64,000 nucleotides of DNA from Natronorubrum halalkaliphilum. Its GTDB lineage: Archaea > Halobacteriota > Halobacteria > Halobacteriales > Natrialbaceae. The DNA is taken from the NCBI RefSeq assembly GCF_009834785.1, contig NZ_WUYX01000013.1, forward strand, positions 1-64,000, given 5' to 3'. Shown here in pieces: positions 2,262 through 54,119 of this stretch. Below the pieces are notes generated by a model. That model did no database searches and was not told the DNA's origin. It saw only the letters and a list, made by a program, of their open reading frames with translations. Numbering within the stretch: the stretch's first letter is position 1; each line of letters starts with the position of its first letter. Made by a program: the position numbers and the translations under genes.

Positions 2262-3356
2262 CTAAGAGATGTCATGTTCAATAGAGGTCAAAATCCACTC
2301 ATTAGAATCTAAAGTCAAGTCAGTAATTCTATCTTTTTTTGATAACGGCTTTGCCATAAACCTTGTTTCCGAGGATACTTTTGAGATTGGGAACGAAGAA
2401 TCAGATCGAAAACCATTTTTAGAAAGGATATCATCTGGGAGTAAATTATTTGGAACAATAAATAGGTCTGTATTCCAGTTATCATATATGGATTGTTTAA
2501 TTAATGCATCTATAGTCATTGTTTGATTCTGCAAATCAAGTAGTGGTAATATTTCTACAAATCGTGTAGTTTCAAACTCGTTTCCATCAGTGTGTTTACT
2601 GGTGACAATAGCACCCCTAAGTTCACCATCTATGTATCCAAGATATGTAGTGTACTCCCGTCTTGGATTGTCGAATCGCCAATTATAGAACCGTTCGTTT
2701 CGAAAAACATGTGCTCTATCTGGAACTAGATGTTCGTAGAGTCGTGTAAGTGAATCTGCTGGCGTAGTGGATAAGGAGCGGACATCAACTGGGTTGTTCT
2801 GCGACAATAATCTTTGTCGGACCATATATGGAGAATTATATAACAACCTTCCAATTCCATATGTGTGGGATGGGATTGGCAAGTCGGTCTTGTCTGCAAC
2901 AATTGCCAGCGGATTCTGAAAGCGATAATACGTTTTAAGCAAATCAATAGTTTCCCACCCCATTTTTTTATTTGCTGGAGCGCTGTTCTGATTTGGAAAG
3001 TTGAAGAAGATATCCACATCACTTTGGGAGTACTCATGGATAGATTTTTCAGTCATCTTAGTGAATAACCCTTGACGTCTATGGTCAGAATGAACCATGG
3101 TATCACAGGGTTGCAAGGCGAATGATGTTTTCCCGTTAATAGATAGCTTTAATGCGAAAAATGCTTTAACCCCAATAACTTTTTCATTGAACTCAGCTAC
3201 GAAAATAGGAATATGGTCAATAAAGGGGTTGTCAATATACTTCCACCTGAACCAATTGAATGATGGTCTAATAAACCAAGTGTGATGGTAAAGATCCAGA
3301 ATATCTTCAATATCATCTATTTCAAACCTTCTAATGGTGTACTTATCACGTCCCAT
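2262..3356 (-). CDS. GNAT-fold N-acetyltransferase, glycan-cluster type
   Basis: Predicted acyl-CoA-dependent transferase of the GNAT superfamily, 364 residues with two GNAT-like halves. The first half carries a motif A-like acyl-CoA loop, DHRRQGLFTK at about 91-100, after a beta strand with CDTMVHS. Such large GNAT proteins are common in archaeal and bacterial polysaccharide loci, where they acylate amino sugars. Its start codon overlaps the last 11 bases of the deacetylase gene, so the two are one transcription unit read leftward. Codon use is AT-rich, unlike most of the window. The substrate cannot be told from sequence. Confidence 0.75.
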   Translation of the reverse strand: MGRDKYTIRRFEIDDIEDILDLYHHTWFIRPSFNWFRWKYIDNPFIDHIPIFVAEFNEKVIGVKAFFALKLSINGKTSFALQPCDTMVHSDHRRQGLFTKMTEKSIHEYSQSDVDIFFNFPNQNSAPANKKMGWETIDLLKTYYRFQNPLAIVADKTDLPIPSHTYGIGRLLYNSPYMVRQRLLSQNNPVDVRSLSTTPADSLTRLYEHLVPDRAHVFRNERFYNWRFDNPRREYTTYLGYIDGELRGAIVTSKHTDGNEFETTRFVEILPLLDLQNQTMTIDALIKQSIYDNWNTDLFIVPNNLLPDDILSKNGFRSDSSFPISKVSSETRFMAKPLSKKDRITDLTLDSNEWILTSIEHDIS

Positions 3357-4269
3357 GAGTTATATGTTCTTCAGCGATTTCAGCCATCGTCTGTACCCTT
3401 AAATCGGTCTGTTGACGTTTTCTTGCCACATACTTAAGAATTGCATACATTCTATCGAAGTATGATTCTTGAGTCAGATTATTTGGGTGTAACCAGAGAT
3501 GTAATATTTTGTCAGAGCCAGCTACTGCGTCGATTCCTCGTTTTACACGTCGGACGATTACATCACCTAACACCGGTTCAGTAAATATGCCAAGTGGCTG
3601 ATCAAATGTGAACAGATACATTGAAGCAGGAACATTAACTAAGCCGTACTCGTCTATAACTGGAGAAACAAGTTTTGGGGCGGATGATGAAAGGGTGGAT
3701 GCAAATTTCATAAGAGGGTACACTTTCGATTCATCGTACCACTTCATTGGTTCTTGTCCTCGATAACAGATTATGCCCTGGTCTGCGAGTACCTCACGGT
3801 AACCAATGTTATTTCGGGGATAGACAACAGACTTGATATTATTTCCCCATTCTTCAGCTATTTTAATACTTTTTTGAATTTCTTCCCTAGCGATGTCTTT
3901 AGTTGTTGATTTTTTCCCAAATTCGACATGTGAAAAAGTGTGTGTGGCGATCTCGTGGTCAACATTAGCCTTAGAGACCGATTCAATAAGGTTCGGACCA
4001 AACCACTGTGGAGCTTCCTCAACATTACCACCCGGGTCGCGTGCGAACCAATTATTTGTCGAGACAATATTGCCATGGTTACCATTACACTCTGAAAGGA
4101 AGAGGTGTCCTACTATGGCCCAAGTAGCAGGGACGTCAAATTGATCAAATAGATCAACTAGTTCCTGCCATGCCTTTCGTCCCTGGTATACTCGGTCAGT
4201 TGGGATTATTTCCTCGTCGTGAAATCCCCAAGCAAGTTCAGCATCAAGTGAAAATATAATGGAGCCCAT
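3346..4269 (-). CDS. Polysaccharide deacetylase (NodB-homology) family protein
   Basis: Carbohydrate esterase family 4-like protein, 307 residues. Motif 1 is FSLDAELAW (residues 6-14), giving the catalytic-base and metal Asp. Motif 2 is THTFSH (about 109-114), giving the two metal-binding His. Motif 3 resembles YPRNNIGY at about 150. These enzymes remove N- or O-acetyl groups from polysaccharides or lipid-linked sugars using a divalent metal. No signal peptide is seen, so action at the cytoplasmic side of the membrane is likely. It is translationally coupled to the GNAT gene, suggesting successive deacetylation and re-acylation of one sugar, which is an inference. Confidence 0.85.
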   Translation of the reverse strand: MGSIIFSLDAELAWGFHDEEIIPTDRVYQGRKAWQELVDLFDQFDVPATWAIVGHLFLSECNGNHGNIVSTNNWFARDPGGNVEEAPQWFGPNLIESVSKANVDHEIATHTFSHVEFGKKSTTKDIAREEIQKSIKIAEEWGNNIKSVVYPRNNIGYREVLADQGIICYRGQEPMKWYDESKVYPLMKFASTLSSSAPKLVSPVIDEYGLVNVPASMYLFTFDQPLGIFTEPVLGDVIVRRVKRGIDAVAGSDKILHLWLHPNNLTQESYFDRMYAILKYVARKRQQTDLRVQTMAEIAEEHITHGT

Positions 4270-4424
4270 ATTCTAGTAGGGAGAGTTCTAATCTAGGATT
4301 ATAAAAAGCTTATTATTATTATTATCACAACTTTGGAGTAGATCGCTATAATAGTTCATCTTAATTTCACCTTTCGCACTGTACTAGTCAATAGGTATTA
4401 CCCTCTGTGGAATACTTAGTACGT

Positions 4425-5249
4425 ATGGAACAGAAAATTCGACGATTTGTTGAAATTCAACACAATCACGGTACTATATCTGCTCTAAACTCAACTAAAT
4501 CATATTTAAAAAACAAGTATTGGAACGTCAAGGGAGGGACTCAAACCTTGACTATCGGTAACCTAAGTGCTGAATTTGATGCTACAACTGACCGAGGTGG
4601 TGATAAAATTCGATGGATGTGTAATGCCGAAGAGCGCTTTCTAAAAGACATATCAAATGAGCTCAAAGATGATGATGTTTTTTTTGATATTGGTGCCAAT
4701 CTTGGGGTGTTTAGTTGTTTTGCATCTCAAGTAGTTTCCCGAGGCCACATTGTAGCTTTTGAGCCCTATCCACCGAATTATCGGCAACTAAATCGGAATT
4801 TGTCATACAATGCACCCAGTTCTAGCTATGATGTTTTTGATATTGCATTGTCTAACTCCCAAGGGTCTATTGAATTTAGTTCCCCTAGTAACGACACTGG
4901 TAACCAGACTGCTAATATTAGTCCAACTGGTGACTCTATTGAGGTACAAGAAATTCCGGGGGACCAGTTGGTAACTGATAGGTCTGTTCCATCCCCAACA
5001 GTAGTGAAAATAGATGTTGAAGGGTCTGAGCCACTTGTTATTGATGGATTAGAAGAAAGTTTGAATCATAGCTCGTGCCGAATTCTCTACTGCGAAATTC
5101 ATTTACCGAAAAAGAGCGGTAGCCGACCATCTGTTGAATACTATGGTGAATCTCAAAAGAGTATGTTAGAGAAGATATCGAAATTAGGGTTTGACATTAC
5201 ATATAGTGAGAAAAGAGATAGGGAGGTTCATGTTAAAGCGGAAAAGTAA
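4425..5249 (+). CDS. FkbM-family methyltransferase
   Basis: SAM-dependent methyltransferase of the FkbM type, about 274 residues from the ATG at 4425. An upstream GTG at 4407 would add six residues. The SAM-binding motif I is VFFDIGANLGVFSC, followed by the acidic loop VAFEPYPPNYRQL and the late FkbM signature VVKIDVEGSEPLVIDGL. These enzymes O-methylate sugars of surface glycans. It is divergent from the GNAT/deacetylase pair, sharing an AT-rich 140-base promoter region with it. The 3' neighbour is a dead IS, so the operon has probably been cut short. Confidence 0.88.
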   Translation: MEQKIRRFVEIQHNHGTISALNSTKSYLKNKYWNVKGGTQTLTIGNLSAEFDATTDRGGDKIRWMCNAEERFLKDISNELKDDDVFFDIGANLGVFSCFASQVVSRGHIVAFEPYPPNYRQLNRNLSYNAPSSSYDVFDIALSNSQGSIEFSSPSNDTGNQTANISPTGDSIEVQEIPGDQLVTDRSVPSPTVVKIDVEGSEPLVIDGLEESLNHSSCRILYCEIHLPKKSGSRPSVEYYGESQKSMLEKISKLGFDITYSEKRDREVHVKAEK

Positions 5250-31762: not shown

Positions 31763-34700
31763 TCAGTTCTCCGCAGACCCAGTCAGCCCGGCAGCAGTCA
31801 CAACTCGAGAGAGCGGCCGAACCAACAACTCGCGCACGAGCCGACGTCGCCGATCACTCCGAGAGATCCACTCGGCGATCGGCGGCGATGTCGCGTAGTA
31901 CGCCTCGACAAACAGCCGCCCGAGCCGACTCGAGCGAAGCGTCGTGTCGCGGAAGTCACGTAACTGAACGACGTGGTCGTGATCGAGACTGCCCTCCGCG
32001 GCGGTCGCGATGAAACACTCGTCGACCTCGTCGTCGCCCTCGACGGTCGCCGTCGCGGAGTCGAACGCCTCGGCCGGAGTGAACCCGCCTGACGGCTGGA
32101 TGACGACCAGCACTTCCTCGTCCGCCTCGAGTTCCCGAGTGAGCTCGAGTGTCCGTTCCGTTCGGTCCTCCCCTGGATGTGGCGTAGCTGGGCTCGCAGT
32201 GATTTCCTGCTCGCTTTCGTCGCCGACTCGGATCCGCAGATTTTCATCGTGTCCCGGACTGATGCTGTAGTTTACCACGACAACCGTCTCGCCGGCCTGT
32301 GGCTGTGCAGCGAACTCCACGGTCGTCGTCTGTACGACACTAAACGCTCGCTCCAGACTATCGTCGTCCGTCGTCACGGTCAGATCGTACTCGCCGCGCT
32401 CGAGCGCAGCGGTATCCAGATCGACCGGTGTGTCCATCTGGTCACCGGTATCCAGTGTCGGTGTGGAGAGCACCTCGGTCCGAACGGCGTCGCCGGTGTC
32501 GTCGGTAACTGTGACGGTGACTTCCTGCTCGTCTTCCAACCCCAGATTCGTCACGGTCACTTCGGGGCTCATGTCCGTTCCCAACTCAACCAGATCGGGG
32601 ACGTCGACAGCCGTGATTTCGAACACGGACTCCTCGGTCGTCGTGAGCTGTGCCGGGGCTGTCCGCGTTGTCTCATCCGCAACGATGACGTACTCGTACG
32701 ATCCGAGTTCGTAGTCGGCGGTCTCGAGTTCGAACTCGATTTCCCTGTCCTCACCAGCTGGCAGAGACACATCTTCCGTATCGATCTGTTCGCCATCGAA
32801 CCGGAACGCGATCTCGTCGTCAACCGATTCGTCGACGGTGTTGGCTACCGTTACTGACACGGTCGGCATCTCGCCCTGCTCGAGCACGTCGGGAGCCTCA
32901 ATTGCCTCAATCCGAACGCTGTGTTCCCAAGCGAGTGCCGGATATCCATCGGTAACGACCCACGTCTCGGTGAAGTCGAAGTCATTGAGGTTCGCCTCGG
33001 CAGCGTTCCCGGTCATCTCGTCGGTTGTCAGCCCGGTCCCACCACCGTCCGTCGTCTCCGTCTCCGTGGCCTCGAGATCCCAGTAGGAACGAGAAATGGT
33101 CCCGTCCGAATTTGAGGCGACGAGCCCGTTCGCGTCCCCGGTGATCCTCGCACTCGCGTACGATTCTGTCACGGTCCCGCCGAGAGCGTTCAGTCCGAGG
33201 ATCCCTGCGGCACCTCTATCGCCGTGAACGGATCCCCGTGCTACTGATTTCTCCACGTGATCGCCCGACGACTGGCCGATAATGCCACCGACTGTGCTCT
33301 CACCTTCGACTCGAGCCTCCGAGAGCACGTCGGTAATCACGACGTCCTCTTCCACGGTTTCGCCCGATATCGTGCCACCGATGATACCGCCGACGTTGTC
33401 CTCGCCGACGATATCACCTGACACGGAGACCGCGGAGATCTCGACAGGCGAAGAAGCCAGTCCGACGACACCACCGACGAAGTCCTCGCCGGAGAGATTT
33501 GCGTCCACGAGGCGAACGTCGCTGATCGTCCCGCCGGAGACGTTGCCGAACAATCCAACACCTTCGAACTGGTCTACAAATTGCTCGATTCGAAGATCGC
33601 GTATCTCGTGGCCCTGCCCATCGAGAGTACCGGAAAACGGATTATCTCCCGTTCCGATACGAACGAAGTTCTCGAACTCACCGAGATCGATATCGCTCGC
33701 GAGCTCGAAGTGAGCCGTTCGCTCGAGGTCGGCGTACGCCAATTCCGAGCCGTCGGTGACTTCGTAGGGATTGGTGGCGGTTCCGTCTCCGAGTGCCGGC
33801 TCGTCGGCGATGACGATCGTATCCGTTGAAGTCGTCTCACCGACACTCGCGGTGACGACGAGCTCGTTCTGCCCACCGTCGGTCGGAACCGAAACCTGTG
33901 CAGCATCCGTTTCACCGATGGGTACCGAGACCGAATCCGTGCCGACGACTTCGTCGCCGACTTCAAAGACGATCGACAGGTCGTTCAGATCGTCCTCGTC
34001 GCCACCCAGTCCCCGGACCGTCGCCTCGACGGATGCATCCTCACCGCGCTCGGCAATCGGACCGGCATCGACCGCAATGTCGACGGCCGGATCGGCTGGC
34101 TCGCCGACTGCGACCGTGTCGATAGCCACTGGATCGATTCCGTACGGATCATCGTCGACGATACCAGCAGTAACGTCTCTGGTCTGCTCGAACGGAATGC
34201 CGTTTTCCGTGTCCGCTGCCGCAACTGTTTCCTGACCGCTCTCTCCAGGGGTGAGCTCAAGGAGCTCCGCTGCACCACCTTGTTCGGTATCGAGACGGAG
34301 CGTGACCTGCTCTCGTTCCTGGTACTTCTCTGAGAGGGCGTACTCGACGGTCACCTCGGTCTCACCGGCAACGGGCTGCTCAACGAACGCGACCCGCCCG
34401 CGAACGGGAACCGTTTCCGAGACGATCGCTTGCCCCCGGTCGGAAACGCCGGGGTCCAACAGTGCAACCTCCAGGGATTCGTCCTCTGTGATCGAACTCG
34501 AGAGCTCGAGTTCCGTTTCGACAACCGCGTCGGGCTCGAGTTCGAACGGCGATTCCGTCACCTCCCCCTGCTCGTCGCTGAAAACTCGAAGGTCAGCCGT
34601 CGACTCGGTCCGCGCGGCGACTCGGACCGTCGTCGAATCGATCGATGGCGGGTCGACGAACTCGACGAAATGAGGGACGGCGTGTTTTCTGTGGAAGTCG

Positions 34701-35685
34701 ATGACGTCCTCGGTGACCGGGCGGTGGCCGACGTTCGGATACACCTCAACTCGACCCGTCGCGTCCGCGTCCTCGTACACCGATTTGCAAAACGGCATCC
34801 GATCCTCCTGCATGTGGGTTCCGTAGACGTCTAGCGCAATCTCGCGCTGTGATGGATTCCAGGCATCGTTGTACGGGATCGTATCGTTCTGGTCATCCCC
34901 GCCATATACACCAGCTGATCGGTCTCTTGCCAGCCTTCCAGATCGAATTCGTGGCCGGTCAGGGACACGAGGTCGGCGACGCCGACCTGGTAGTTCAGTT
35001 GGTGCCCGTTCGCTTCGGTTTCGGGTAGGAGTGCCGTTCCGTTGATCCCGCCAGCGGTGGCCGATCTGACGATCTCCGGATGAAGCGCAGTGAATCGATT
35101 CACGAAGTTCCCCGATGCGGAGAATCCGTTCATGAGGATCCCGTCGGCAACGGGATACGAACGGTCGGCGAGTTTCGCTTTCGCGTGCTCGATCATGTGA
35201 AGCAGCTGTTGATCGACTCGTTCTAACTTTCCGCCGTCAATTTGCATCGTCTCGACGTCGAGTGCGTGGACGTAGTGGTAGCCATCGACTGGATCGGACG
35301 CCGGGCGCGGGAACACGGGGACGAGGACGGGAACACGAAGTTCGTCGGCGATTTGTCTCGGTGTCTGTCTCTCGATCAGGCTCTCCGCAGCCTCGCGATG
35401 ATCCTCGAGCGAATCCGAGGTCCCTCCCGTGTTGTTCGGTTCGACGAGAAGCGGGCGATCGTACTCGTCAACAGTTGCCGGAGCGTAGAGATAGTACGGA
35501 TAGTTGAACCCAGCATCGCTATCGGCCGAGATCACCGTCACGTCCAGTTCGCCGTTGCTGGCTGTTAGCGAACGTCCCTTGCCGTCAGCGCTCACTGCAC
35601 CGACGGCCAACCCACTTGACGTAACCGTCGTCGTAACGGCGGTCGTTTTCAGTAGGTCGCGACGATTGATACCGGAATCAGACAT
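31763..35685 (-). pseudogene. Tat-exported esterase-like surface protein with GLUG repeats and CFI-box-CTERM, frameshifted
   Basis: One gene now read as two frames. 35685-34831 encodes a twin-arginine signal (INRRDLLKTTAVTTTVTSSG) and an alpha/beta-hydrolase-like domain with nucleophile-elbow-like NGFSASGNFVNRF and FTALHPEIVRS. At a CCCC run (34897-34900, + strand) the frame breaks, and the other frame continues GDDQNDTIPYNDAWNPSQRE, then MPFCKSVYEDADATG and YPNVGHRPVTEDVIDFHRKH, the expected catalytic-His region. That frame then carries Ig/CARDB-like modules, GLUG-type repeats (about residues 400-600 of the second frame: GLFGNVSGGTISDVRL), more CARDB-like modules, and the CFI box (DECFIATAAEGSLDHDHVVQ ... 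YYATSPPIAEWISRSDRRRR). Restored length is about 1,300 residues. One added base in the G run would repair it, so assembly error must be excluded. Confidence 0.82.
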
Positions 35686-37564: not shown

Positions 37565-40297
37565 TCATGCGTCAGATCCATCGAATCCGAGTGCGGAGGC
37601 GACCCGGGCTGCAGGTCGGACGACTGTCGAGCGAACGATCGAGCGTCGACGTGGACTCTGTGCAATCCAATCAGCGACCGGCGGACTGGTCCCGTAGTAC
37701 AATCGGACGAACAGTTCACCAATCGTGTTTCCTTTCAGGCTCGAGTCACGGAACGCTCGTAACGTCTCGACCTGATCGTGGTCGGGTGTTCCACAGGCCG
37801 CCGTTGCGATGAAACAGCCTTCCCGGACGTTGACCGTCTCGGTTGTTACAGCGAGAGGCATGTCTGTGTCGTCCATAATGTATAGCGTAACCTCGTGATC
37901 GCCTGGGTCGCTGAAGGTGTGGGTCGCTTCGGTCCCAGTGGCGTCGATCCTGTCATCGTCCGTGAAGTCCCACATGTATTCCTCGATCTTTTCGGCCGGC
38001 TCGGACGCGCTGGCGTCAAACGTCACCTCGGTCTCGACGTCGGGAGACTCCGGCGAGAACGTAAACGAGGCCGTCGGGCCTGCGTCATCGGCAACAGTAA
38101 CGGTATCGGAGGCTAACGTTTCGCCGGGCTTGTACTCCCCGGCCTGGGGCTGGACAGCAAGGGTAATCTCCTCTCCTTCGGTCAGATCCCTGGTCAGTTC
38201 GATCAGCCCATAGCCAAAGGGTATTTCGGGTGGTAGCAGTATTGGCTCCTCGATAAGTTCGTCGTCTGCCTCATCCACGACGCGCACCTCTACCTCGTCG
38301 TGATCGGCAAAGTCCTCGTCGGACACGGTAACGCTGATGGAGACGTACTCGTCGCTGTCGGACGGTTGTTGCGTAAACGTGGCGTACGATGCATCCGCTG
38401 AGGTCGGCTCTCTCTGAAGCGCCTTGTCGCGGTCCTCGTCTCCTTCTTCAAGGAGAGCAATCTCTAGGATATCGCCTGCTTCGAGTCCGTCGGTCAGGCC
38501 GACTCTGTCTTGAACATTCTTGCCAGGATCAACCGTCAGGACGTCCGCTGTCAAGTCCGATCCATCGGGCCGGAATGCTCGTACATCCACTCCGTCGTCA
38601 CGAGTAGCTGGAACGTCAATATTAACTTCGATAGACTCTGAACCGACGCTGGGCCGTTCCGCGACGTCAAACTCCGGGTGACCAAAGACGGTCGTCTGCT
38701 CCGAAACCAGTACCTTCTCCTCGTCGTACTCGTCCGCAGCTTCCTGGATGGCCGCCGTGATTTCGTCACCCTCGGTAAGTTCTTCAGTCAGTGGTAGCCG
38801 GTCGCCCCAGATAGTCACGTACTCGGGTACGTCAATCAGATCAACGCCATCCGCGTCCACGATCCGCAGCTCCAAGTCCTCCCCGTCCGTATCCCGGTGG
38901 TCGTCGGAGACGGTCGCGATCACCTCGACGAAGTCGTCGTCGTCAGTCGGTTGTCGTGTGAAATCGACGTGTGTGGCGTTCACCGTCTCGCCAGCGCTAC
39001 GGAGCGCCTCGTCGGGGTCTGTGACCCCTTCTTCAAGGAGAGCGATATCCAGGCCGTCTCCGGCCTCGAGCGGCTCGACCAGTTCGACGGTTTCGACGAC
39101 GGTCTCGCCGGGTTGGACGGTGATGGCTTGATCCGTTAGATCAGTTCCATCCCAATGGAATGCGCGGACGTCTACCGGATCGCCGTCCGACGGAACAACG
39201 ACCTCTACCTCGATGGACTCAGCACCTGGATCGGGTCGTTCCCTAATGTCGATCCCTGTTACACCGGCGTGTGGTCGGAAATGCGACAAGATATCGGGTA
39301 CTGCATCACTCTGCGTCTCAAACTGGCTGGTGTCGTCGTACTGCTTAAACTGCGCCTCGAGGCCAGCCTCTTCGTAGACCGCCTCGCTGTGCTCGAATCG
39401 GGCCAGAGGATCGTTGCTGTACACGTCGGTTACGTCCTGACGTTGCTCCTCATTCCACACCAAATCGGAATCGACGAGATCCATTTCCGACTCGTCGCCT
39501 GTGTAGAGGAACTGATCGACGTCTGCGAACGCAGTCTGATCGAACGGCTCGTCGACATCCGCAACGCCGATGGGGTAGTTCAGCGTGGTGTCGTTCGCTT
39601 CCGTTTCTGGAAGGAGCGCCGTCCCGCTGAATCCACCGGCCGCCACCGCCCGGACTCTCTCGGGGTGGAGTGCCGCAAACCGGTTGACGAACAGTCCGCC
39701 ATAGAGAAAACCGTTCAGCAAGACGCCATCAGCAACGGGATGCCACTCGTCAGTCAGGCGATCCGCTGCGTCGTCGATCGCGGCGAGGAGTTGCTCGTCG
39801 AAGCGTTCGAGCGGCCCCTCGTCGAGCCCCATCGTTTCGGCGTCCAGCGCCGGAGCACAGTACGTTTCATCCTCTGGTTCGGTCTCGAACCATGGGATAA
39901 CTGGGACGAGCACGGGAACCTCGAGTTCGCGGGCGAACTGCCTGCCCCTAGCTTCGATCCAATTCTCTGCGTCCTCAACGTGTGATCCCAGATCGTCGTC
40001 CGGTTGCGAAAAGGGGACCGGCATCACGAGCAGTGGCCGTTCTTGGTCGTCACGGATCCGCGGCGGACCGTACAGGTGGTACATGTAATTGAAGTCGTCT
40101 CCATCATCGGGGTGGATAGTCGCTTCAAACTCGTTGGAGGACGCCGCGACCGACGTGGTCCCGCCGGTCGCTCCGAAGCCGATTGCACCGAGTACCCCCG
40201 CACCTGTAGTTTTCAGCACGTTCCGCCTGCTTGTGGCGACTTGTTTCTTCCGTGACCGATCAACTCCCACAAAATTACCGTCAGCAATATCTACCAT
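37565..40297 (-). CDS. Tat-exported esterase-like surface protein with PKD domain and CFI-box-CTERM
   Basis: 910 residues. Tat signal at about 20-52 (SRRNVLKTTGAGVLGAIGFG). Residues about 55-335 are an alpha/beta-hydrolase-like domain, homologous to that of the frameshifted neighbour, but the elbow reads NGFLYGGLFVNRF where the neighbour has NGFSASG, so the nucleophile Ser is missing. Two tandem repeats of about 190 residues follow (each with ESIEV, DVRAF, ALLEEG and FTRQP/FTQQP). A PKD domain comes next (TASFTFSPESPDVETEVTFD ... YMWDF). The CFI box follows (GCFIATAACGTPDHDQVETL ... YYGTSPPVADWIAQSPRRRS). The protein is exported folded and probably kept at the cell surface. It looks intact and is possibly a pseudo-esterase that binds rather than cleaves. 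Confidence 0.85.
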   Translation of the reverse strand: MVDIADGNFVGVDRSRKKQVATSRRNVLKTTGAGVLGAIGFGATGGTTSVAASSNEFEATIHPDDGDDFNYMYHLYGPPRIRDDQERPLLVMPVPFSQPDDDLGSHVEDAENWIEARGRQFARELEVPVLVPVIPWFETEPEDETYCAPALDAETMGLDEGPLERFDEQLLAAIDDAADRLTDEWHPVADGVLLNGFLYGGLFVNRFAALHPERVRAVAAGGFSGTALLPETEANDTTLNYPIGVADVDEPFDQTAFADVDQFLYTGDESEMDLVDSDLVWNEEQRQDVTDVYSNDPLARFEHSEAVYEEAGLEAQFKQYDDTSQFETQSDAVPDILSHFRPHAGVTGIDIRERPDPGAESIEVEVVVPSDGDPVDVRAFHWDGTDLTDQAITVQPGETVVETVELVEPLEAGDGLDIALLEEGVTDPDEALRSAGETVNATHVDFTRQPTDDDDFVEVIATVSDDHRDTDGEDLELRIVDADGVDLIDVPEYVTIWGDRLPLTEELTEGDEITAAIQEAADEYDEEKVLVSEQTTVFGHPEFDVAERPSVGSESIEVNIDVPATRDDGVDVRAFRPDGSDLTADVLTVDPGKNVQDRVGLTDGLEAGDILEIALLEEGDEDRDKALQREPTSADASYATFTQQPSDSDEYVSISVTVSDEDFADHDEVEVRVVDEADDELIEEPILLPPEIPFGYGLIELTRDLTEGEEITLAVQPQAGEYKPGETLASDTVTVADDAGPTASFTFSPESPDVETEVTFDASASEPAEKIEEYMWDFTDDDRIDATGTEATHTFSDPGDHEVTLYIMDDTDMPLAVTTETVNVREGCFIATAACGTPDHDQVETLRAFRDSSLKGNTIGELFVRLYYGTSPPVADWIAQSPRRRSIVRSTVVRPAARVASALGFDGSDA

Positions 40298-51853: not shown

Positions 51854-53413
51854 TTACGAAGACGGCGGGGACGTAGTCCACGCTCGAAACTCGCCGACGT
51901 CCCCGTCGGTGTCGTCGTCGGGGTCTCCAGTGGCCGTTCGAGTTCCGACGCCGTCGAACGCGACGCCGCCGTAGGCGACGCTACTGTCGGGGCCCGCGTA
52001 AATGCCGACGGTGCCACAATCGGCCGCTCGGGCGGTCGTCAGCGTCACGTCGACGTTCTCCCGGAAGCGAAACGCCTGATTGTCCGCGCCGCTCGCCGTC
52101 ACGTTGCTCATTTTCAAGTCATCCATGTCGTCGAAGAGGATCGCGTTCGTAAACGCCCCGTCGACGCTTAGGTTGGAGAGTTCGGCGCCGTCGAAGCCGC
52201 TCGCGTACAGCCCCGATCCGGCAGCCAGCCCCTCGTCGTCGGTCCTGATCGTGACGTTGCTGATCGTCAACTCCCGTCGACCGCTCTCGATATGCCCCAG
52301 CGAAATTCCCCGCGCGTTGTCGATACACGAGACGCCGTCGACGGTCAGGTCCTCGAGCAGCCCGCCGGTATCGGCCCTGATAGCCGAATCCCGACAGCCG
52401 GTGATGTACCCGTCTTCGATCGTGATCGACTCGTTCCCGTCGCGGTGGATGTGGACGCCGTACTCCGCGCCGTTCTCCGGATCGATCTCGAAGTTCGTGA
52501 GAGTGCAGTTTCTGGTTGGAGTGCCGTCGTCTTCGACGCGTGCGTACCTGTCTCCGTCCTGTATCCCGTTCGCTTCCGTACCCTCGTTCTGATTGTCGAG
52601 CTGAAACGGCGCGTCTATCTCGTGCTCCCCGCCGCGGGTCGCCCAGTAACCGTCCACGACGACGTTTTTCGACGACACGATATCGATGTGATGGTAGTAA
52701 ATCCGGTCGCCGTAGATGTTCTCCAGTCGGACGTTCGCCGCGTGGGCGGGCAGAACGCCGTTCGCCTCCGGCGCGTCGATTCGGACGTTCCGAATGCCCC
52801 AGTTCGACGCGCCGTCGTACCCCGTCTCGTCGTAGCCCCGGTTGGAGAACAGCGCCCGTCCTTCGTCGCCGTCGGGGCGTGGCCCTTCGAAAACGGTCGA
52901 GCGGCCGGCGCCCAGCAACAGCGTATCGTCGCCGATCAGCGGCGTGCGCTCGAGGAGATATCGCCCCGGCGGGAAGTACACGACGCCGCCGCCCGCTTCG
53001 TCGACCGTCTCGAGGAGGTCGTGTACGTCCCCTCCGACCTCGGTGGTACCGTCGCCGTCGATTCCGTGAGCCTCGACGTTCCACACGGGAGTCTCCGCGG
53101 TTCGTCCGTGGACGACGTCGAGGACATCTCCGACCCCCGATTCGAAAGCCACCGTCTCGTACTTCCTGGTGGCACGGACCCATTCGGAGCCGTTCCCGTC
53201 GAAGACGCGGCCGGTGTCCGTCGCGATGAAGATCGCGTCCGCGTACGGTTCGTACTCGCCTTTGTTCGCTTCGCGATCTCGAGCGACGAGTTTCGCCTCG
53301 AGTTTCGCGGTCATGTCGTCGTTCATTACGTCTTCGCCCCAGTTCCCCTCGTAGGAACCGGGGACGGGACGTGGCAGGTCGTGGTTCTGGGTCGGGTTCT
53401 TGTCCTCAGACAT
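51854..53413 (-). CDS. Right-handed beta-helix (pectate-lyase-fold) protein, tailspike-like N terminus
   Basis: 519 residues. The N-terminal 80 residues ([33 protein letters not shown]) resemble adaptor domains of phage or halovirus tail-fibre proteins. From about 125 it is a parallel beta-helix: [20 protein letters not shown] is the entry turn ([10 protein letters not shown]), and repeated strands follow ([60 protein letters not shown]). Such folds bind or cut polysaccharide. No signal peptide is seen. Its ATG overlaps the last 8 bases of the CFI-box gene, so they are co-translated. Confidence 0.8.
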
Positions 53414-53789
53414 TAGTCGTGAGCCTCGTGACCGGGCGGATTAGGTACCGCCGCGTCAGTCGCTTTCGTCGTTCGCTGCGGCCGATCCATCGCGCGATCG
53501 GCGGGCTGATTCGGTAGTAGGTTCGGATGAACAGTCGGCCGAGCGCGCGCCGGGCCAGAACGCGGTCGCGGAACTCGCGTAACTCGAGGACGCGATCGTG
53601 ATCGGCCGAGCCGTAGGCGGCGGTCGCGATGAAACAGTCCTGGGACGTCGTCCCGCCCCACGGTCCGGCTCCCCACGACCCCTCGCCCCACCCCGTTTCC
53701 GTCTCGCCGGCGGACGCCGAGCCCGTCAGCCCGATCGCCGACAGCGCGCCGGTGACGGCGGCGATCAGCCGTCGCCTCGAAACTGACAT
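53406..53789 (-). CDS. Small Tat-exported CFI-box-CTERM protein
   Basis: 127 residues. It has a twin-arginine signal ([20 protein letters not shown]), a short Gly/Trp-rich linker ([13 protein letters not shown]), then the CFI box: [60 protein letters not shown]. It is essentially signal plus linker plus CFI domain, the minimal form of the family. It is translationally coupled to the beta-helix gene. The 8-base overlap suggests equal output of the two products. A leaderless promoter lies at about 53810. Confidence 0.85.
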
Positions 53790-53808: not shown

Positions 53809-53818
53809 CATTATATAG
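53809..53818 (-). promoter_or_regulatory. TATA element of CFI-box/beta-helix operon
   Basis: CTATATAATG on the minus strand, about 24 bases before the ATG at 53789, giving a leaderless transcript. The rest of 53819-54119 shows no feature. Confidence 0.65.
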
Positions 53819-54119
53819 GTCTGTCGTGACAGTCGGCCGAGGTCACGGTAGCCAGGAGTTGCGGTCGTCGGCCGCCGAACGTCCGTTTCACGACGAAACG
53901 ACAGTCCGGAACCGGGCCGGGTGAGAGAACACCACACCCCTCCTATCGCACGTCTGAAACGGCGGTACCGTCGTGCGGTCGGGTCACCGAGTCCCAACGA
54001 CCGAATCGAACGCCGATCCGTCTCCAGGCGCGCCCTCGAGAGATCGCCACGCGCGCGCCGAAGCGACGAGCAGAACACAAGACCTTTCGTTCGGCTAATC
54101 GCTGTTCTCGAGAGAATCA

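What the first reader, a model, noticed from the sequence alone, without database searches (positions are those of the whole stretch)
51854..53789. CFI-box secretion protein co-translated with a tailspike-like beta-helix
The 127-residue Tat/CFI protein is little more than signal and CFI domain, and overlaps by 8 bases a 519-residue beta-helix that has no signal peptide but an N-terminal [11 protein letters not shown] block like virus tail adaptors. The small protein may dock or export the beta-helix. This would be a two-component surface polysaccharide-binding system.
Basis: inference. Interest (0 to 1): 0.55.

Follow-up and report, generated by a model that had tools for sequence, protein, structure and literature searches.

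The report
Anchor-plus-spike surface cassette in salt-loving archaea
Two overlapping genes, one for a small exported protein and one for a virus-spike-like protein without an export signal, belong to a recurrent gene pair of salt-loving archaea in which the small protein probably carries its partner out and holds it on the cell surface.

Summary
In detail: a 127-aa Tat-signal/CFI-box protein (53406-53789, minus) overlaps by 8 nt a 519-aa beta-helix protein without signal peptide (51854-53413, minus). It is an aromatic-glycine tip ([Y/W]G-x2/3-[Y/W]G-x2/3-[Y/W]G) after the signal peptide. Of 54 relatives of the beta-helix examined, 49 keep the N-terminal attachment module; all 49 have a 42-63 aa Tat-type protein ending in this tip directly upstream (47 with a lipobox). 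The other 5 lack the start of that module, and all 5 carry a Tat-lipobox signal fused to the beta-helix. Among 656 control genes the rule fired twice, both times before cassette genes. The module occurs in 133 of 391 haloarchaeal genomes; in a partly hand-picked set of 78 other module ORFs, 39 have such a neighbour (34 with a full triple tip). The Tat-CFI version precedes spike genes in two proviruses. Best reading: a two-gene surface-display cassette, in which an exported anchor with a docking tip carries a signal-less spike-like protein through Tat and holds it outside. Docking and co-export are inferred, not shown. My paper searches found no description.

The parts
53406..53789 (-). anchor gene: 127-aa Tat-signal / aromatic-glycine tip / CFI-box protein
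   Evidence: ORF; NF041770 89.9 bits
53706..53789 (-). Tat-like signal peptide, residues 1-28 ([28 protein letters not shown]); no lipobox cysteine
   Evidence: read from sequence; alignment with the two provirus counterparts; no predictor run
53652..53693 (-). aromatic-glycine tip, residues 33-46 ([14 protein letters not shown]), proposed docking element
   Evidence: only match to the tip pattern in the window; counterparts in 49 of 49 mini anchors and both provirus Tat-CFI proteins
53436..53636 (-). CFI-box domain, residues 52-118; all-helical in a medium-confidence model (blocks of pLDDT 69-77)
53406..53413 (-). 8-nt gene overlap ATGTCTGA (stop of anchor, start of spike gene)
   Evidence: an 8-nt overlap also in the Halolamina rubra pair
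51854..53413 (-). 519-aa signal-less tail-spike-like beta-helix protein
   Evidence: ORF
53159..53413 (-). N-terminal attachment (docking) module, about residues 1-85, incl. [21 protein letters not shown]
   Evidence: alignment A4; hit at 53162-53395, E 1.7e-27 with the A4 profile, which includes this sequence
51986..53080 (-). right-handed beta-helix body, residues 112-476
   Evidence: PF12708 112-341, PF13229 380-476
53810..53819 (-). TATA-like box CCTATATAAT about 25 nt before the anchor ATG: possible leaderless promoter for the pair
   Evidence: read from sequence; archaeal promoter spacing recalled, no promoter tool for archaea used

Best explanation
The two genes are one form of a haloarchaeal two-gene surface-display cassette. 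The first product is exported by Tat and stays at the membrane; its mature part offers an aromatic-glycine tip. The second product is a tail-spike-like protein without a signal peptide, whose N-terminal module binds that tip. They meet in the cytoplasm (overlapping or adjacent genes), cross the membrane together through Tat, as hydrogenase subunits do in bacteria, and the spike stays outside, held by the anchor. In most relatives the anchor is a 42-63 aa lipoprotein (lipid anchor plus tip). In the window and in two proviruses there is no lipobox and a CFI domain follows the tip, probably as another way of staying at the membrane. Shown by sequence: pairing, tip, module, their co-occurrence, and the fused alternative. 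Inferred: export route, binding of tip to module, anchoring by CFI, the spike's ligand (probably a surface or matrix polysaccharide).
For: (1) Of 54 relatives of the beta-helix (all 56 places in 125 family genomes, except the window and one broken copy), 49 carry the module and 49 of 49 have a 42-63 aa ORF with twin arginines and a C-terminal tip directly upstream (42 at +2 nt, 3 at +1, 3 at -4, 1 at +14); 47 of 49 have a lipobox, 43 of these 47 with 14-15 residues between RR and cysteine by the regex. The broken copy (G054) also has the mini anchor. (2) The other 5 of 5 lack the start of the module and have a Tat-lipobox signal fused to the beta-helix (L103, L104, L289, L290, L291): the two states exclude each other. 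(3) Control for the strict rule: 656 other genes, 2 hits, both cassette genes. (4) DNA of the spaced YG triplet in 125 genomes: 67 sites, 47 of them just upstream of a beta-helix gene; the reversed pattern as control gives 50 sites in the same genomes, so the other 20 are background level. (5) Both arginines and the three tyrosines are invariant in 49 of 49; median pairwise dN/dS 0.37 over 1126 of 1176 pairs, not independent. (6) In one genus ten copies lie in five neighbourhoods and all ten keep the partner. (7) Of 78 other module ORFs 39 have an adjacent protein by a looser Tat+tip rule, 34 with a triple tip; control 738 genes: 26 hits, 17 of them anchors of cassettes seen from the gene on their other side, 9 unrelated and without a triple tip. 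(8) Tat-tip-CFI plus spike pairs in two proviruses. Tat co-export of a signal-less partner is an established mechanism (PMC10924467, abstract and passages).
Against: Binding of tip and module was never observed; no complex could be modelled, and the single-sequence model of the 519-aa protein is unusable (pLDDT 43). 39 of the 78 surveyed module ORFs had no such neighbour by the rule (at least L296 is a miss of start choice), and in 3 of the 39 positives the locus ends before the anchor's start, so its signal was not seen. Twin arginines alone are not specific here: an ORF with RR but no tip required lies before 141 of 656 control genes, so the weight rests on the tip and the lipobox. The window's tip is W-based with spacing 5, whereas the mini anchors have Y with spacing 4. 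The CFI form rests on three loci. Tat signals were judged by motif only.
Confidence: 0.68

Rival explanations
1. Virus remnant: the pair is a stray piece of a provirus tail module. The Tat-CFI protein is a viral surface or superinfection factor and the beta-helix a tail spike that works only in virions.
For: Tat-CFI plus spike pairs lie inside proviruses of G058 and Halolamina rubra; the tip also occurs in their phrog_18406 tail proteins; PHROG tail-spike hits.
Against: The window neighbours scanned (8, others not scanned) gave MFS, PAC2, kinase and YdjM families and no capsid, tail or packaging hit. The beta-helix is 61-77% identical to copies in 55 other places of 125 family genomes; the neighbourhoods listed did not look viral, though they were not scanned with PHROGs. 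5 relatives are Tat-lipobox proteins themselves.
Confidence: 0.15
2. Independent neighbours: the small Tat protein works alone (or only couples translation), and the beta-helix protein acts in the cytoplasm.
For: No interaction data; adjacency can reflect co-regulation only; half of the surveyed module ORFs have no detected partner beside them.
Against: Lipobox, twin arginines and three tyrosines conserved in a 42-63 aa protein with little else; mutual exclusion with fused Tat-lipobox forms; the partner can also lie downstream (4 of 39), which excludes a mere leader there.
Confidence: 0.1
3. Programmed frameshift: the two ORFs are read as one Tat lipoprotein by ribosome slippage.
For: Tiny gaps (mostly +2 nt) and natural fused versions.
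Against: The frame relation varies (+1, +2, -4, +14, and -8 in the window); other partners lie up to 160 nt away or downstream; fused forms lost the tip and the start of the module instead of keeping them.
Confidence: 0.04
4. One reading: the CFI domain itself is the docking or export element for the beta-helix.
For: CFI domain present in the window and in two provirus pairs.
Against: Absent beside all 54 relatives; elsewhere CFI ends several large Tat-type surface proteins or sits before a C-terminal hydrophobic segment.
Confidence: 0.05

Closest known systems
Tat hitchhiker (co-translocated) complexes, e.g. E. coli hydrogenases
   Same: Only one of two partners carries the twin-arginine signal; a membrane anchor sits on the signal-bearing or the partner subunit (PMC10924467 passages).
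   Different: Those are redox enzymes; here the carrier can be a 42-63 aa lipoprotein and the passenger a spike-like protein with an exchangeable body. Co-transport is not shown here.
Cohesin-dockerin surface anchoring (recalled)
   Same: An exported anchor offers a docking element for partners with a small docking module and exchangeable bodies.
   Different: No sequence relation: no such Pfam domain in the two window proteins. The docking element here is a glycine-aromatic tip, and the passenger has no signal peptide.
Tail spikes of tailed viruses (phrog_2234, phrog_7458)
   Same: Beta-helix body and N-terminal attachment module; the module occurs in a haloarchaeal provirus near a tape-measure gene (L258).
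   Different: The window pair is not in a recognised virus module, and its partner is a Tat-type protein.
Haloarchaeal Tat lipoproteins (TatLipo set)
   Same: The mini anchors have RR, LAGC-type lipobox and, in 43 of 47, an RR-cysteine distance (14-15) inside the 12-21 given in PMC2945643 (passages).
   Different: They are almost nothing but signal, lipobox and tip; the window protein has no lipobox.
CFI-box-CTERM proteins (NF041770)
   Same: The window protein is a clear member.
   Different: Several haloarchaeal members seen are large surface-type proteins; here the domain is on a minimal protein paired with a spike.

Membership tests
CFI_box_CTERM (NF041770) | score above the curated cut-off (40 bits) | tested here: met
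   89.9 bits, positions 1-67 of 69
PF12708 / PF13229 right-handed beta-helix | score above the gathering cut-off | tested here: met
   45.8 against 27 and 37.4 against 25.9 bits; 15 of 15 aligned members match both at E up to 0.001
Tailed-virus spike | encoded within a virus tail module | tested here: not met
   window neighbours scanned are MFS, PAC2, kinase, YdjM or without family; no phage structural hit. Met for the provirus pairs in L099 and L140
Haloarchaeal Tat lipoprotein | twin arginine plus lipobox cysteine 12-21 residues after it | tested here: not met
   window anchor: first cysteine is residue 52, in the CFI box. Mini anchors: lipobox motif in 47 of 49, distance 14-15 in 43 of 47 (the other four are 7-10 by the regex)
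Tat substrate | Tat-dependent export | not testable with these tools
   motif only; no predictor or experiment
Tat hitchhiker pair | signal peptide on only one of two co-encoded partners | tested here: met
   by motif: 49 of 49 module-bearing relatives and the window pair
Tat hitchhiker pair | physical complex and co-translocation | not testable with these tools
   needs experiment
Cohesin-dockerin | cohesin or dockerin domains | tested here: not met
   no such Pfam hit in either window protein up to E 1

The most novel reading that the evidence does not exclude
The aromatic-glycine tip is a portable docking tag shared by virus and host. In some haloarchaeal tailed proviruses it sits both on a tail protein and on a Tat-exported CFI protein encoded directly before the spike, so the same spike could be mounted on the virion or on the infected cell's surface (masking receptors, excluding rivals). 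Haloarchaea then turned this tag-and-module pair into a general plug-in display system with exchangeable bodies; its module is found in about a third of the haloarchaeal genomes sampled.
Probability: 0.2. Interest if true: 0.87.

Novelty: new variant of a known kind. Interest (0 to 1): 0.74.

Why it matters
It would explain how a class of signal-less beta-helix and other module proteins in haloarchaea reach and stay on the cell surface. It gives a function to anchor genes of 42-63 codons (the one annotated copy I looked at is a 'hypothetical protein'). It proposes an archaeal counterpart of cohesin-dockerin anchoring that uses Tat co-export, and a small docking tag that works at high salt and can be tested directly in laboratory haloarchaea.

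Tried and rejected
CFI protein as general partner: rejected, since no CFI lies beside the 54 relatives. Cultured virus relatives: a tail protein of the Halolamina provirus matched 8 phage records; six regions were fetched; no ORF of 60 aa or more there has a CFI motif or a triple tip. The CFI protein itself matched one phage record of 50,697, a Clostridioides phage, not followed. Viral-contig searches with the single CFI proteins and with the 519-aa protein found nothing; with alignments they found 6 CFI loci, one of the Tat-tip kind and that the Halolamina contig itself, and 1 module locus. Other CFI hits read are a different protein with a C-terminal hydrophobic segment, or lack Tat and tip (G039). 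AlphaFold2 on the 519-aa protein alone failed (pLDDT 43), so no fold search was made. The module profile has no convincing PDB match (E 0.14); the CFI profile has none up to E 1. In 392 genomes drawn from the phylum, hits outside the order are weak and partial: 3 genomes, E 1.6e-6 to 3.6e-6. Of the 20 YG-triplet sites outside the beta-helix cassette 8 were read: none is a tiny tip protein, but one (L380) is a 146-aa Tat-signal protein with a long Tyr/Gly-rich stretch and no module gene among its listed neighbours.

Rows dropped: the G054 copy is broken into two pieces and was left out of the 54. L053 and L057 duplicate L103 and L104. The 40 loci fetched were picked by hand from the module places listed (itself a cut list), leaving out the beta-helix family already counted; the other 30 are the best-scoring ones that one search returned. 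Two identical ORFs were dropped before the count of 78. In one search, 50 of 1176 pairs were dropped as saturated or identical.

Full report
OBSERVATION. The small protein is Tat-like signal (residues 1-28), aromatic-glycine stretch [14 protein letters not shown] (33-46), CFI box (52-118). The large one has an N-terminal module of about 85 residues and a beta-helix body. A TATA-like box lies about 25 nt before the first ATG (read).

RELATIVES OF THE BETA-HELIX. It is common: 10 of 10 genomes of the genus and 56 long matches in 125 genomes of the family, the window included. No CFI protein lies beside it in any of them except the window (CFI places compared with beta-helix places; neighbour comparison). 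So the literal pair is not conserved. Two relatives (L103, L104) begin with a Tat-lipobox signal where the others have the start of the module. That was the first sign that the protein works outside the cell.

A SMALL PARTNER. Looking upstream of each copy (then with fixed rules) showed a tiny ORF. I examined 54 copies: all 56 places less the window and the broken G054 copy. 49 carry the module and every one has, directly upstream, an ORF of 42-63 codons with twin arginines and a C-terminal SGYGTAYGxxYGTE-like tip; 47 have a lipobox. The distance is +2 nt in 42, +1 in 3, -4 in 3, +14 in 1. The 5 others lack the start of the module, and all 5 have the Tat-lipobox fused to the beta-helix. Anchor-plus-module and fused anchor thus replace each other in 54 of 54. 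The broken G054 copy also has the tiny ORF.

CONTROLS. The same search before 656 other genes in fetched loci and the window gave 2 hits, both cassette genes that the filter had not removed (L278, L257). Without the tip requirement 141 of the 656 have an ORF with twin arginines, so RR alone says little. A test that does not start from the beta-helix: the DNA pattern of three spaced Tyr-Gly pairs, searched in 125 whole genomes, gave 67 sites, 47 of them just upstream of a beta-helix gene; the reversed control pattern gave 50 sites (summed), so the remaining 20 are what chance gives. Eight of the 20 were read: none is a tiny tip protein, one is a Tyr/Gly-rich Tat-type protein without a module gene beside it. 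The tiny ORFs are conserved as protein: RR and three tyrosines in 49 of 49, lipobox cysteine in 47, median pairwise dN/dS 0.37 (1126 of 1176 pairs, not independent). The one annotated copy I looked at is a hypothetical protein in Natrinema zhouii. Within the genus the ten copies sit in five different neighbourhoods (L039; L040/L042; L041/L043; L044/L045/L047; L046/L048), and all ten have the partner.

WIDER FAMILY. A profile of the module (A4) hits 133 of 391 genomes of the class, in 47 of 86 genera, at E up to 1e-5. In 71 loci (30 given by the search, 1 viral contig, 40 picked by hand) there were 78 distinct module ORFs; 39 have an adjacent protein by a looser Tat+tip rule, 34 of them with a triple tip, 3 of them cut by the locus end before their start. 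The same loose rule on 738 genes without the module gave 26 hits: 17 are cassette anchors seen from the gene on their other side, 9 are unrelated and have no triple tip. Many of the larger anchors (to 728 aa) keep the tip near the C-terminus (e.g. DDYGEQGYGQYGYGG), often after a Thr/Pro-rich linker; in four of the 39 the anchor gene lies downstream. The other 39 had no partner by this rule; at least one is a miss of the rule (L296, found). Haloarcula hispanica has such a pair, although its anchor is annotated from an internal start.

VIRUS CONNECTION. Short Tat-tip-CFI proteins were found in three genomes: the window's, G058 and G332. G332's contig has the length and the protein of Halolamina rubra CBA1107 and of an IMG/VR contig. 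In G058 the gene lies 2 nt before a 511-aa protein whose N-terminus is weakly similar to the window's module (E 0.003), in a provirus with portal, terminase and protease genes. In H. rubra it overlaps by 8 nt a 601-aa beta-propeller protein. In both proviruses a tail protein (phrog_18406) carries the same aromatic-glycine repeat. The fetched regions of cultured relatives have neither CFI nor triple tip. The module also stands near a tape-measure gene in another provirus (L258). I infer that the module comes from virus spikes.

MECHANISM. Haloarchaea export much by Tat, and about half of their Tat substrates carry a lipobox (PMC2945643, passages). Tat is known to carry signal-less partners bound to a signal-bearing one (PMC10924467, passages). 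An anchor that is little more than signal, lipobox and tip, next to a signal-less protein whose module start is missing exactly when the signal is fused to it, fits a carrier-and-dock pair. In the window the lipobox is missing and the CFI domain follows the tip; since CFI domains elsewhere end several Tat-type surface proteins or sit before a C-terminal hydrophobic segment, I take it as the membrane-holding part. It is helical in a medium-confidence model. The body may bind a polysaccharide: the sequence profile finds the plasmin- and fibronectin-binding surface protein PfbA, a pectin lyase and alginate C5 epimerases. This last step is the weakest.

LITERATURE. Searches for the CFI box, haloarchaeal Tat lipoproteins with tail spikes or fibres, hitchhiker or co-translocation in archaea, small lipoproteins with beta-helices, a GYGG motif and microproteins with Tat listed no paper whose title or shown abstract describes this pairing; the library is open-licence PMC only.

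VERDICT. The pair is real and belongs to a larger kind of two-gene cassette that I could not find described. It works, most likely, like a Tat hitchhiker pair that doubles as a surface dock. Membership in cohesin-dockerin was tested and not met.

Noticed in passing
window 31763-34813 and 37565-40297 (minus): Two further CFI-box proteins, large surface-type proteins (CARDB; PKD), so three CFI boxes lie within about 22 kb although only 19 of 125 family genomes have any.
   Followed up: partly
window 31763-35685 (minus): The 1016-aa CFI protein shows no signal; directly upstream (34831-35685) lies a 284-aa Tat-signal ORF resembling the start of the 910-aa protein at 37565-40297, so one gene may have been split (read).
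   Followed up: no
L140 6304-7458 and L099 11319-12539 (phrog_18406 tail proteins): The aromatic-glycine repeat occurs in phrog_18406 of the two CFI-bearing proviruses and in no tail protein of the cultured relatives checked.
   Followed up: partly
L263 6278-7953, L365 3541-5216: In Natronosalvus amylolyticus the module protein sits between a gene annotated as phage tail protein and a Tat-tip protein, among beta-propeller genes: possibly a larger surface assembly.
   Followed up: no
L099 about 3350-4535: CRISPR-like repeats (read from the repeated translations, no CRISPR tool run) directly beside the end of the G058 provirus tail module.
   Followed up: no
L363 2167-4482: Haloarcula hispanica HAH_RS18945 is annotated from an internal start; the frame opens further upstream and contains a Tat-lipobox signal.
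   Followed up: partly
L380 1593-3396: Three tandem small Tat-type proteins rich in Arg, Gly and Tyr in G010, function unknown.
   Followed up: no
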